From NCBI GenBank assembly GCA_029945375.1, contig CM057063.1, positions 2,477,894 through 2,541,893 on the forward strand: a stretch of 64,000 bases of DNA, written 5' to 3'. Shown here piece by piece: positions 35,658 to 43,131 of this stretch (its first letter is position 1; each line of letters starts with the position of its first letter). The position numbers were made by a program, and so were the translations under genes. The stretch is from Agaricus subrufescens. Taxonomy: Eukaryota > Basidiomycota > Agaricomycetes > Agaricales > Agaricaceae. The notes beneath the pieces are model-generated. The model was not told where the DNA came from. It worked only from the letters and a program-made list of their open reading frames with translations, and searched no databases.

Positions 35658-36731
35658 TCAATTTGCGCTTTCGACAGGGCTCGGTTCTGTCTCGCCTTCA
35701 TCATAGTGTTTGTGCATGGCCTCCTCACGACACGCCAGAGAACAGAAGTAGTCTGTATCACTTTGGGGAAGAACAAGGCACATGATACAAGGGGATAATA
35801 GTCCAGAAGTGACGGCTTCCCTACAGCAACGAGTAATAAGTCCTTTGGTAAGGGATGGGAAAACAGGACAGGAAACGTACTCCCGGTGCCTCAACGAACA
35901 GAAATCGCTCGTCACTCCTTCTTCGTCAACATAGACAGACTGCTTGCAGCCAGGGATAATGCACCTAAGATCATCGGTAGTCGATTTGGTGCTAATATTA
36001 AGCTTCGGTTGAGTTTTCTTCTTTCCGCGCAAAAAGGAGGGTACCGAGAGAATACCGTTTGAACCCTTGGTCGCGTTACTAGAAGCTTGACCGGTACCAG
36101 CGGAGACAGCAGCGGAGCTAAAAAGGGGGTTACTGGCTGGGGATCCGGTGGATTGGACATTGGGACCAGTGGCGCCAGAGGCTGTTGACCCTTGGCCCTG
36201 CGCAGCGGCGAGCATTGATTGGATTTGGGGGACAACGAGTTCTATATTTACGTCAGTCCCGGCCCAATACGATCAATGTATTGACACGCACGAGCAATCT
36301 GCATTGGGTCAATGGTGCTGCCACTCCCAGCGAGTTGCTGGCCAGCGTTAGTACCACTGTTCTTCTTGCTTGCGCTGCTCGTCGCAGAGCTTCCAGGACG
36401 AGTCTTTGTCCCGTTGGCGCTCGCGAGGGAGGCGCAGTGCTTTCCGCAGTATTCGAAATTCTGGAATTTGGGCTTCTTCCGGCAATGCTATAAGTGAAAT
36501 GTGCGTCAGCGCTAGCGATGAGAGGATCATTTCTGTATTAACTTACGTTACAGAGGGCCGCAGCTTGAGTGGCGCAGGTCTTGGAACAGAATTGGTGATT
36601 CCCGTACTTGGGCTTCAGGTGACAAAGCTGGGAATTCATTGAGAGATATCCACGATAATAATGACATTTCCTACTTCACAGAGCTGAACTCCCGCTGCAG
36701 GTTGAGTAATCGGGGCACGGGTAACGGCCAT
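35658..36731 (-). CDS. Four-zinc-finger protein, ART-paralogue without catalytic domain
   Basis: Exons: 36731-36675, 36627-36547, 36487-36292, 36241-35881, 35820-35658 (285 aa, all phases match). Four Cys-rich fingers are visible: CELCHLKPKYGNHQFCSKTC, CNHCRKKPKFQNFEYCGKHC, C-x4-C ... FCSLRH, and CIMCLVLPQSDTDYFCSLAC. A Ser/Gly/Ala-rich linker separates fingers 2 and 3. The same four-finger order occurs at the N-terminus of the ADP-ribosyltransferase gene at 41294, where a catalytic domain follows. Here the frame stops soon after finger 4, and no ART sequence exists downstream. I infer a truncated paralogue, possibly a binding or decoy subunit. The finger type is not one I can name exactly; it resembles FCS/MYM-like CxxC...CxxxC zinc sites. 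It is directly upstream of the NADAR gene on the same strand. Confidence 0.82.
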
Positions 36732-36953
36732 ACTAAGAGCGAGGAAGAAGACTGAGTAGTAGCTTGTGGGTGGAACATACTAAGTATTTATACTATCTTA
36801 AATAGCTTTACGACAATGTTGCAGACATGTTTCATCAGAAGACACGTTGCGTATCACGTCCTACACGCCCATATATGATATCGCCTCCTACCCTACACGT
36901 GCCTTCGGTAGCCTTTGGGGCAACCCGAGGCCCACGAGGAGATGTAAATTTCT

Positions 36954-37934
36954 TTACTGCCACCCTTCTTTGCGCAACCGCGACCTTAGCCTCTCCAGTC
37001 CTTTTCCGAGCTCATTGAAACCCTTACCATCGGCTCCGATACCCCAGAACGAGTCTTTGTCTGAGTCCTACCCACAATGTCAATCAACACGTTTATCGCT
37101 TACAAATGACGTACTTCAACTAGCTCTGCGTCTCCTGTAGCAAGGAGCTCTGCCCGGAGATCGTTATGTTGAGTAAACTTGTGGTATAAAACCTCATCCA
37201 TCTACATGGTAGACGTAAGAGAGAGAGATAGGCAGTTCAAATACACTGGTACCGTACCCTTGAGATGTTGATTTTCTTCCAGTCGGGTCTAACGTGTCCT
37301 TGGAATCTCCGTGCCTCAGAAAAAGCGACGCTTGGATACCGAGAGAAGAGTCTGATATGCTCTGCTAGATCATCATTATGCCCTTGAAACTGCAGGATTA
37401 TGTGTAGGCATTAATGCTATAAAAGATACGGAAACGTACCTTGAAGGACTGGAAAAGGTGCTCGCTCGTCGGATATACCTTCCCATTATAGTTTACGGGA
37501 TGTGGGGAGAAGTTTGTGAATCCGTAGTGTGGATCATGCTTATGATAGAACAAGATTCTAGGTCTGACGCCTCTGAGAGCACGGTTCGGAGATGGTGGAT
37601 TTGATCGGCGGGAATGAGGTGCCAAAATGGCTGTCGGAGAAAGAGATTTTCTGCCAGCCGAAGCTGAGTTATCTTGAGTTACGAGATAGTCGGTTTGTCT
37701 GTTAGAGTTCAATCGGACGATTGGTTCTGCAGTAACGCTATGTTTGTCAAAGAGAGATCGTACGTCTTGAGGATCCCACTCAGATGGCGGCTGCGATGAT
37801 TGAACATAGATGGTGCGAGTACGCTCCTCGACACGATATGTGACTGGAGGCTTGTGAACAGGAGAGGTAGGTTTAGAAGAGCTTGCTGAATGTGCGGATG
37901 AAGTGAAGATAGTCATTCTTTGGCGGGACGACAT
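36954..37934 (-). CDS. NADAR-domain protein (YbiA/DUF1768 family)
   Basis: Exons: 37934-37440, 37389-37258, 37201-37115, 37067-36954 (275 aa, all phases match). About 125 residues of Ser/Pro-rich N-terminus precede a complete NADAR domain: ILFYHKHDPHYGFTNFSPHP, VNYNGKVYPTSEHLFQSFKF, HIRLFSRYPSVAFSEARRF, VRPDWKKINISRMDEVLYHK, FTQHNDLRAELLATGDAELV and the closing DSFWGIGADGKGFNELG with LERLRSRLR. The conserved SEH, the Phe-Trp-Gly and the G-x-N-x-LG motifs are present. NADAR domains bind NAD/ADP-ribose; bacterial and phage members remove ADP-ribose from guanine in DNA or nucleosides. The ADP-ribosyltransferase genes on both sides make a hydrolase or ADP-ribose-binding partner role plausible here (inference). 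The stop lies 222 bp before the start of the zinc-finger gene on the same strand. Confidence 0.93.
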
Positions 37935-40880: not shown

Positions 40881-41293
40881 GACAAGATTTCGAACGAGGG
40901 AGACCATGACTGGAGTTGTTGGCGGAAGGACGAGAGTATAGGCGAAAGCTTAGATTTTATCAATGGACAGGGGAAAGGAAGTAAGGGACGTGGAAAGCCA
41001 GAGATAAGCGCGCCACTCATCAACCTGCATGCCCTACTTATAAATTTGTCTCGTTTTTGCCTCTCACTCCAACGCAATATCGTTCTATGAGATACCGAAC
41101 AGTTCCGATGTCTGCCTCGTGTCATCCACGTCTTGACCTCATTGTTTTTATGGCATTTGATTCCGTTTCAGGCATGGTTCCACCGTTGTTACGCGCCATC
41201 GTTTAAAAACACACCTCCGATACTCCTCTTCCGTCAGTCGTCGAACGTTTGCACTCTTTCGATAAGTGCTGTGGTCTACAATCTTCCTTCGGA
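40881..41293. promoter_or_regulatory. Divergent promoter region between two zinc-finger ART genes
   Basis: The ART genes at 40880 (-) and 41294 (+) start 413 bp apart, back to back. A TTATAAAT stretch near 41038 is the only TATA-like element, and its distance from either start codon is large. Shared control of two related genes is plausible from the layout alone. Confidence 0.4.
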
Positions 41294-43131
41294 ATGGCGG
41301 CCCATGTTCCAACGATTCTATCTCTCCTCAGCACCGCTGCCTCCGTGTATCCCGCTATTGCCAAATTCAATAGCAGCCAAACCGCACCCGCGCCTGCGGC
41401 AGCACCACCAACAGCTCCAACACAGCAATACATCTCGAATACTCCTGCACCTTCTGCACCCGTCAATATTCCTGGTTCTCTCCAATCACAACCTAACAAT
41501 GGACCATCAGTGACGGGCACCAGTCCTCCAAATCAGGGCAACCCTTTGTGCGACGTAAGTAGTCCATTTTTGAAAACGTGTTACAAGGTCTAATTGAACC
41601 ATTCAGTATTGTCTTGTTAGACCCAAGTACTCCGATAGTGGCAAGCTTCATCCTTACTGTAGTAAGACGTGTGCCGGCAAGGACAAACGAAAGAATTGGA
41701 CGTCTTCAGTGGGCAACCAGCCTCCACAATTGGCAGTACCTGGAACCCTTTGTGACGTAGGTGGCTAACTATTACTAGCTCGTACAACTAATTCAAATGA
41801 AGGATAGTATTGTCTTGTCAATGTGAAATATTTCGACGGGACGAAGACACATCCGTTTTGTAGTAAAGCCTGTGCGAAGAAAGCGAACAGAAAGCAAAGC
41901 TTGAATGGGAATATGCCGGTGCTCAAACGTGAGTAGACTTATCTTAGATGACTGTAAATCCATAGTTTAATATCTCTCAGCTCAAGGCGTATGTCAAGCG
42001 CCGAACTGCCAAAGTCAAGTGTATACCAATCCTAACGGCTCTCTCGGAGAGTATTGTTCTTTAGCTCACAAGACGTAAGTTGGTCTATCATATCGCGCGA
42101 TTCTTGATTTCACACTTTGATCGCTAGCCTTGGAGAGTCCCTCTGCCTGATGTGTCTTCAGGCTCCGAAGACAAATTTATCTCACTTCTGTAGTCAAGCC
42201 TGTATTGACAAGGTAGAGAAATTGGGTTCGACCGTTCTCGAGGTTCCTTCTGGTCACACTACTTTTAAGAGTGGTAAGCAATCCTCTGGAATGAAACAAT
42301 ATTTGACGCTAATATCGAATAGTGGCTGATCAATTCAAATCCTCGTGGCGCCATAATACAGCGTGTCCTCCCGTCCGTCGAATTTATAAGATATATTTTC
42401 CTTCGTCTTCCCTCGCTGCATACGACTCTTACCGGTAAGATCGAGTTCCATTCTTGGGTTTGACGTCCCATATATCATAACTTGGATGCTAGGTCTTCCG
42501 TAGAAGCTCGCGGGCAGTTTGTGAGTCAGGGACGGTCTGCAGGAAATGAGAATCGGCGGTGGCATGGTACGCGAAGAGAATGTCATCTCGGAGACAAAGG
42601 CAACACCCAGCTATGCGCATCCCCGACGTGTTCTTTATGTTCCATTGTGAAGAATTCATATGATCTCAGCCTTTTCGGGAAGAAGACTGGCTGGGGAAGG
42701 TAATATAATTTCCTACATCCTACATCCGATACTGATCCTAGTTTAGATTCGGCCGCGGGATTTATACCTCTTCGACGTCTTCCAAGTATGATTTATACAA
42801 TGGTTTACTATGTTTTGGTTAATCACCGTGTAGGTCAAATGACTACTCGCAGAATGATTGCAAATCGAATCTGAAAGCTATTCTACTCAACAAAGTCGTC
42901 GTTGGAAAGGGGCACAAACTGACACACGACCTCACAAGTCTCACTGCGCCCCCTCATGGCTTCGATTCTGTAGGTCTAACAGTTCACACATTATATTAAG
43001 GTTAAATGTTAATGTCTTGCCCCGCACTCTAGGTACTCGCCGAAAAAGGTGGAAGTCTGAATTACGACGAGTTGGTCGTATACACGAACGATGCGATACG
43101 ACCCTCGTTCTTGGTACTGTATGAACTCTAG
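41294..43131 (+). CDS. Four-zinc-finger PARP-like ADP-ribosyltransferase
   Basis: Exons: 41294-41554, 41607-41756, 41808-41928, 41981-42074, 42128-42273, 42323-42434, 42493-42699, 42747-42785, 42834-42969, 43033-43131 (454 aa; ten exons, all in phase). A Pro/Ala-rich N-terminus is followed by four fingers: CDYCLVRPKYSDSG...YCSKTC, CDYCLVNVKYFDGT...FCSKAC, C-x4-C...YCSLAH and CLMCLQAPKTNLSHFCSQAC. Introns fall at the finger starts, so each finger is about one exon. The catalytic part has QFKSSWRHNTACPPVRRIYK, His motif RRWHGTRRECHLG, LCASPTCSLCSIVKNSYDL, Tyr motif FGRGIYTSSTSSKSNDYS, AILLNKVVVGKG, TAPPHGFDS and NYDELVVYTNDAIRPSFLV. This is the most complete ART of the cluster and the best candidate for an active enzyme. 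The target is unknown; the fingers probably bind nucleic acid or protein. Confidence 0.9.

What the first reader, a model, noticed from the sequence alone, without database searches (positions are those of the whole stretch)
35658..43131. Compact ADP-ribosylation gene cluster: three PARP-like ARTs, a finger-only paralogue and a NADAR protein
Five adjacent genes within 7.5 kb all point to ADP-ribose chemistry. Two ARTs (38454+, 41294+) show PARP His and Tyr motifs (FHGT / WHGT and FGxGIYT). A third (39649-40880 -) is a divergent relative. A fourth gene keeps only the zinc fingers. In the middle sits a complete NADAR domain. NADAR proteins are established as ADP-ribosyl-guanine hydrolases in bacterial DarT-type systems. 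A eukaryotic writer/eraser cluster of this form is, to my knowledge, not described. It could be a defence, self-recognition or nucleic-acid-marking system. Physical linkage is seen; functional linkage is inferred.
Basis: partly seen in the sequence, partly recalled or inferred. Interest (0 to 1): 0.93.

Follow-up and report, generated by a model that had tools for sequence, protein, structure and literature searches.

The report
Conserved mushroom ADP-ribose writer-eraser gene cluster
In a mushroom genome, genes resembling enzymes that attach ADP-ribose sit beside one resembling an enzyme that removes it, and in most of the mushroom species compared the corresponding genes also lie on the same piece of chromosome, which suggests an undescribed reversible marking system.

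Summary
Five open spliced gene models fill 35658-43131: a finger-only protein (A), a NADAR protein (B), a finger-less PARP-type ART (C), a degenerate ART (D) and a four-finger PARP-type ART (E). E and C keep the H-Y-E triad. D has lost the histidine (FYSA for FHGT), so "three ARTs" means two probable enzymes and one probable pseudo-enzyme. Other NADARs are linked in 3 of 9 assessable rows. AlphaFold models of the A. bisporus orthologues of E and B give ART and NADAR folds. Most likely this is a conserved writer/eraser module: a PARP-family ART adds ADP-ribose, perhaps to guanine in nucleic acid, and a YbiA-type NADAR removes it. ART-NADAR pairs are known in bacteria; I found no eukaryotic one in the papers searched. 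Activity, substrate, expression and a flanking-gene synteny control are untested.

The parts
35658..36731 (-). Gene A: finger-only protein, 285 aa, five exons; four Cys-rich fingers in the same order as those of E, no ART domain
   Evidence: model; relatives in 53 named species or strains; finger cysteines conserved in the 48 aligned; no Pfam family in the window protein; in those 48 relatives only scattered weak matches, best E 0.012
36954..37934 (-). Gene B: NADAR (YbiA-type) protein, 275 aa, four exons, with an N-terminal extension conserved in many relatives
37935..38453 (.). 519-bp gap between the divergent genes B and C; possible shared promoter (inference from layout only)
   Evidence: gene models; no promoter test done
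38454..39590 (+). Gene C: PARP-type ART without fingers, 275 aa, seven exons; FHGT, FGTGIYT and NYEETVVY (H-Y-E) present
   Evidence: Pfam PARP 1.5e-12; groups with the N-terminal halves of P0004 and P0006, support 1.0
39649..40880 (-). Gene D: divergent, probably inactive ART paralogue, 314 aa, six exons; HGT replaced by YSA, two GC-AG introns, partial fingers
   Evidence: (PARP E 0.015, below cut-off)
40881..41293 (.). 413-bp gap between the divergent genes D and E; possible shared promoter (inference from layout only)
   Evidence: gene models; no promoter test done
41294..43131 (+). Gene E: four-finger PARP-type ART, 454 aa, ten exons; WHGT, FGRGIYT and NYDELVVY (H-Y-E) plus a C-x10-C-x4-C-x2-C insert between His and Tyr

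Best explanation
This is a conserved Agaricomycete module for reversible ADP-ribosylation. E is the writer: its four-finger array brings the PARP-type catalytic domain to its target, and it transfers ADP-ribose from NAD+. C is a second, finger-less writer. A carries the same finger array without an enzyme, so it probably acts as adaptor (possibly for C) or as competitor of E. B, a YbiA-type NADAR, removes ADP-ribose, by precedent from guanine bases of DNA or RNA. D is a decaying or regulatory pseudo-ART. Shown: gene models, family membership of B, C and E, intact triads in C and E, predicted folds for orthologues of E and B, recurring linkage of A, B and E, and C-E adjacency implied by joined gene models in two other genera. 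Inferred: catalytic activity, a shared substrate, guanine as target, and the roles of A, C and D.
For: Linkage: E and any NADAR on one contig in 38 of 44 species, 1.65 expected for 50-Mb genomes; E and B-type 38 of 42, 19 of 21 on contigs up to 500 kb; E-A 32 of 38; B-type-A 29 of 31. Neighbouring locus tags (collected): Leucocoprinus birnbaumii g10027 (E), g10028 (B), g10029 (A) on a 15.9-kb contig; Amanita phalloides 007645 (E)/007648 (B); Stygiomarasmius 010021 (E)/010019 (B); Ephemerocybe 001973 (A)/001974 (B); Hypsizygus 014877 (B)/014878 (A). C-type and E-type ART in one gene model in Gymnopilus dilepis and Psilocybe cyanescens. Control: B-type NADAR rows linked to E or A in 50 of 53, a set of 12 non-B rows in 2 of 8 assessable, Fisher 3.8e-5; the set was picked from the tree with the linkage labels in view. 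Active sites. Folds. Guanine-ADPr hydrolysis is shown for a eukaryotic NADAR (PMC11543638, passages and sections 11-12 read) and on RNA for bacterial and phage NADARs (PMC11833690, passages read).
Against: No activity, expression or substrate data. The A. bisporus orthologue of B passes NCBI's riboflavin-intermediate N-glycosidase model (TIGR02464, 110.3 bits, cut-off 73.7). Guanine writers known to me by recall are not PARP-type; human PARP10 writes uracil marks that E. coli C7 NADAR does not remove (PMC13036486, passages). Flanking genes were not tested, so passive synteny is not excluded. Four E/B-type pairs, six E/A pairs and two B-type/A pairs were on different contigs. Tag gaps are wide in Amanita inopinata (18) and Psilocybe cyanescens (20).
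Confidence: 0.55

Rival explanations
1. Passive synteny: B is a housekeeping riboflavin-intermediate N-glycosidase that happens to lie beside an unrelated ART/finger family, and the block stays together because order in this region changes slowly.
For: TIGR02464 match of the B orthologue above its cut-off; E. coli YbiA is the closest solved relative by sequence and by fold. No flanking gene was tested.
Against: Linkage in species of four orders; the non-B NADARs of the same search are mostly unlinked; many B-type NADARs share an N-terminal extension; the genome has two further NADAR loci that could serve housekeeping.
Confidence: 0.2
2. Conflict system: the ARTs attack foreign nucleic acid or non-self nuclei and NADAR is the immunity factor, as in DarT1-NADAR.
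For: ART-NADAR pairs act as toxin-antitoxin in bacteria (PMC11543638, PMC11125620); the B orthologue has weak matches to bacterial antiphage NADAR-type models: 63.6 bits with cut-off 240 and PADLOC PDC-M42C 2.9e-8. These may reflect only the shared domain.
Against: E is slow-evolving and the aligned relatives keep a nearly invariant core. The E orthologue and P0004 match no PADLOC model. A (74% to A. bisporus) and D (nearest tip 3.66 substitutions away) diverge faster, which would fit conflict only in part.
Confidence: 0.12
3. Protein ADP-ribosylation: E is the main PARP of this fungus, acts on proteins in stress or DNA damage, and B clears free ADP-ribose-type metabolites.
For: H-Y-E triad as in poly-ADP-ribosylating PARPs (recalled); no WGR domain found in the genome; the PARP family search found only this cluster.
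Against: Protein de-ADP-ribosylation by NADARs is not reported in the passages I read; the exon-wise PARP family search missed C and D too, so absence of other PARPs is weak evidence.
Confidence: 0.13

Closest known systems
DarT1-NADAR (DarTG1) toxin-antitoxin system of bacteria
   Same: ART and NADAR encoded side by side; NADAR reverses the mark (PMC11543638, passages and sections 11-12 read)
   Different: The ARTs here match the PARP family and E carries fingers; the NADAR here has the YbiA-type Glu rather than Asp; a eukaryotic multi-gene cluster with finger-only and degenerate members
YarT-YbiA toxin-antitoxin system of myxobacteria
   Same: H-Y-[E/D/Q] ART next to a YbiA-type NADAR (PMC11125620, introduction and passages read)
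   Different: YarT is a bacterial toxin of simpler make-up; here PARP-type ARTs, one with fingers, in a linkage that recurs across mushroom orders
PARP (ARTD) catalytic family: tankyrase, PARP3, PARP4, PARP10
   Same: Sequence match, predicted fold and H-Y-E triad
   Different: Four fungal fingers (in E) instead of WGR, ankyrin or macrodomains (recalled architectures); Cys insert between the His and Tyr motifs; linked NADAR
Plant and bacterial YbiA-type riboflavin-intermediate N-glycosidases
   Same: Same domain; the B orthologue passes TIGR02464
   Different: Linked to ARTs; carries an N-terminal beta-beta-alpha extension in the predicted model of the orthologue

Membership tests
NADAR superfamily, YbiA subfamily (gene B) | NADAR domain above the Pfam cut-off | tested here: met
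   127.5 bits, cut-off 35.1
NADAR superfamily, YbiA subfamily (gene B) | Catalytic-equivalent Glu, Lys and subfamily Glu (E43, K50, E125 of P. nicotianae NADAR) | tested here: met
   E158, K165, E238 in B, placed by my reading of the 8bau alignment; kept in 118, 120 and 114 of 120 homologues; residue roles from PMC11543638 section 12
NADAR superfamily, YbiA subfamily (gene B) | ADP-ribosyl-guanine hydrolysis | not testable with these tools
   needs enzyme assay
PARP/ARTD family (genes C and E) | PARP catalytic domain above the Pfam cut-off | tested here: met
   C 47.9 and E 48.4 bits, cut-off 26.7
PARP/ARTD family (gene E) | ART fold | tested here: met
PARP/ARTD family (gene C) | ART fold | not tested
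   no model of C or of a C orthologue alone was made
PARP/ARTD family (genes C and E) | H-Y-E triad | tested here: met
   C and E motifs; H320, Y371, E436 at 90% or more in 95 relatives of E
PARP/ARTD family (gene D) | Triad histidine and Pfam cut-off | tested here: not met
   FYSA replaces FHGT; 15.3 bits, cut-off 26.7
DarTG1 toxin-antitoxin | BC4488-type NADAR with Asp in the last strand | tested here: not met
   Glu (E238) at that position in B and in 114 of 120 homologues
DarTG1 toxin-antitoxin | DarT-family ART | tested here: inconclusive
   C, D and E match no ART family but PARP in Pfam at E <= 1; the E orthologue and P0004 match no PADLOC model at E <= 0.1. That these libraries hold DarT models is recalled, not checked
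DarTG1 or YarT-YbiA toxin-antitoxin | ART toxic alone, neutralised by NADAR | not testable with these tools
   needs expression assay
Riboflavin-intermediate N-glycosidase (TIGR02464) | Score above the curated cut-off | tested here: met
   A. bisporus orthologue P0121 110.3 bits, cut-off 73.7; the model covers the same domain, so this does not show the function

The most novel reading that the evidence does not exclude
A eukaryotic, mushroom-wide reversible ADP-ribosylation system for guanine in DNA or RNA, in which a zinc-finger-guided PARP-family enzyme writes the mark and a linked NADAR erases it, with the finger module also supplied in trans by gene A to the finger-less writer C.
Probability: 0.3. 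Interest if true: 0.93.

Novelty: new variant of a known kind. Interest (0 to 1): 0.8.

Why it matters
The physiological role of NADARs outside DarT operons, those of eukaryotes included, is stated as unclear (PMC11125620, discussion passage). A recurring linkage to a specific ART gives a concrete candidate partner in organisms that can be grown and edited, so the question of endogenous reversible base ADP-ribosylation in eukaryotes becomes directly testable.

Tried and rejected
They are insensitive: the PARP family search found one stretch of E and missed C and D, so the absence of other PARPs is weak evidence.

Other NADAR loci: taken out with 10 kb each and read as open frames. The search with E returned hits only inside this cluster, so no ART was detected at either locus.

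A regular expression for the NADAR N-terminal motif separated linked from unlinked NADARs poorly: it was absent in 26 of 53 linked rows. I used a tree split instead. I picked the 12 non-B rows from the printed order of the tree, where the linkage labels were also shown, so the choice was not blind. With the first rooting the set was not a clade; rooted on P0121 it falls with C10, C2, P0126, P0138, P0161, P0167 and P0189 in a group of 19 tips, support 0.997.

No paper found describes a fungal ART-NADAR linkage (searches; passages; sections). A search on gene-order conservation was seen as a listing only and not used. The library lacks most subscription papers, including the 2012 NADAR survey that I know only by recall, so this is not proof of absence in print.

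Rows dropped before counting: 18 of 120 E rows, 35 of 120 B rows and 8 of 61 A rows, because no named species with a contig length was shown; 102, 85 and 53 rows were kept. One E row (P0066) was typed without its contig length; its species has no A or B row, so no count changes. Only the best 120 of 346 E hits and of 768 B hits were listed. Strains of one species were kept apart where the names allowed (A. bisporus, Ephemerocybe, one Mycena sanguinolenta). Same-contig matches on contigs of several Mb are weak one by one. The 500-kb counts use the shared contig for linked pairs and the shorter contig for unlinked pairs.

Distribution of D was not tested: in the ART tree the nearest tip to D is 3.66 substitutions away, and no search with D was left.
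Full report
What is there. The stretch 35658-43131 holds five open spliced gene models. From left to right they are A (-), B (-), C (+), D (-) and E (+). Introns are 44-69 nt and use GT-AG, except two GC-AG introns in D. B and C are divergent across 519 bp, D and E across 413 bp; C and D converge with 58 bp between them. Pfam gives NADAR for B, PARP for C and E, a sub-threshold PARP match for D and nothing for A. 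E also has a sub-cut-off match to MYM-type fingers (19.1 bits, cut-off 22.4).

Active sites. C and E carry the histidine (FHGT, WHGT), the tyrosine (FGTGIYT, FGRGIYT) and a glutamate in NYEETVVY or NYDELVVY that I align with the PARP catalytic glutamate (alignment of the family; the meaning of the triad is recalled knowledge). In 95 E relatives H320, Y371 and E436 of the A. bisporus orthologue are kept at 90% or more, and so are C326, C337, C342 and C345, placed between His and Tyr. In 125 ART rows scanned by motif (122 from the database, counting halves of two joined proteins, plus C, D and E), 122 have the HGT histidine; the exceptions are D, P0073 and P0115. D has FYSA and is probably inactive. 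B keeps the residues that matter for guanine-ADPr hydrolysis (PMC11543638, section 12 read): the equivalents are E158 in 118, K165 in 120 and E238 in 114 of 120 homologues.

Own genome. E relatives were found only in this cluster at E <= 0.01, and A relatives only at gene A at E <= 0.1. NADAR was found at three loci: this one, contig 10 and contig 2. One macrodomain locus was found and no WGR domain. These searches go exon by exon and are insensitive.

Linkage elsewhere. Protein searches with E, B and A list a source species and contig length for most rows. E and any NADAR match in 38 of 44 species against 1.65 expected for a 50-Mb genome; all three families share one contig in 18 of the 22 species where all three are listed. 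Restricting to B-type NADARs gives 38 of 42, and 19 of 21 where the contig is 500 kb or shorter; E-A 32 of 38; B-type-A 29 of 31. The four E/B-type misses are Lentinula raphanica, Leucoagaricus sp. (45.5- and 55.3-kb contigs, so perhaps assembly breaks), Lyophyllum shimeji and Mycena sanguinolenta; the six E/A misses are Agrocybe pediades, Amanita rubescens, Hygrophoropsis aurantiaca, Leucoagaricus sp., Macrolepiota fuliginosa and Plicaturopsis crispa; the two B-type/A misses are Amanita rubescens and Mycena leptocephala. Sequential locus tags show near-adjacency, best in Leucocoprinus birnbaumii with E, B and A as genes 10027, 10028 and 10029; two species show wider tag gaps (Amanita inopinata 18, Psilocybe cyanescens 20). 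In Gymnopilus dilepis and Psilocybe cyanescens one gene model joins a C-type and an E-type ART, and these C-type halves group with window C at support 1.0. This suggests that C and E separated before these genera diverged from the Agaricus line.

Control. The same NADAR search returned other NADARs outside the B-type clade (split support 0.997). B-type rows are linked to E or A in 50 of 53 assessable rows. A 12-member non-B set, picked by me from the tree with labels in view, is linked in 2 of 8 assessable rows (Fisher 3.8e-5); adding P0126, also linked, makes it 3 of 9, and this last figure carries no test of its own. In M. galericulata, M. latifolia and M. leptocephala the B-type gene is linked and the other NADAR is not; in Crucibulum laeve the non-B gene is linked too, and in Cyathus striatus one of two is. 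Twenty-three of 85 rows could not be assessed because their species had no E or A row. This controls for family and search, not for slow rearrangement of the region: flanking genes were not tested.

Spread. Linked E/B-type species include Hymenochaetales (Rickenella), Jaapiales (Jaapia), Polyporales (Somion) and many Agaricales (order recalled, not looked up).

Gene A. Its relatives keep two CxxC...KPK...YCxKxC fingers, a C-IPGC...YCS-RHRE finger and a final CIMC...DYFCS-C finger, in the same order as the four fingers of E. Its presence in 53 named species or strains makes it a conserved family and not a recent fragment of E.

Reading. The simplest account is a writer/eraser module. Precedents are DarT1-NADAR and YarT-YbiA (PMC11543638 and PMC11125620, sections and passages read). 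NADARs reverse guanine ADP-ribosylation, also on RNA (PMC11833690, passages). The closest negative fact is that E. coli C7 NADAR does not remove the uracil mark of PARP10 (PMC13036486, passages). A riboflavin role for B is the main rival. Matches of the B orthologue to bacterial antiphage models are weak, and the E orthologue matches none in PADLOC.

Novelty. ART-NADAR pairing is a known kind; a PARP-type, finger-bearing, eukaryotic version conserved through mushrooms is not described in the papers I could search.

Noticed in passing
39649-40880: Gene D needs two GC-AG introns and has lost the HGT motif while its frame stays open; it could be a pseudo-enzyme under selection or a decaying gene.
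   Followed up: partly
L030 (G000 contig 10) around 4812-5264: A NADAR frame of a different, divergent type; the search with E found no ART there.
   Followed up: partly
L031 (G000 contig 2) around 4425-5008: A further NADAR preceded by a long low-complexity frame; its residue at the position of the first catalytic Glu appears changed (TAMH where B has TSEH).
   Followed up: no
P0008 and P0071 (Thelephora terrestris proteins): Each carries two ART units in one gene model, suggesting tandem duplication of this family in that fungus.
   Followed up: no
P0130, P0132 (Cyathus striatus, Crucibulum laeve) and P0126 (Mycena pura): A second, non-B NADAR lies on the same contig as the cluster genes in these species.
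   Followed up: partly
32788-33720: COQ4 gene beside the cluster; a good flanking marker for the synteny control.
   Followed up: no
46390-46731: Part of a tyrosinase-like gene on the other side of the cluster.
   Followed up: no
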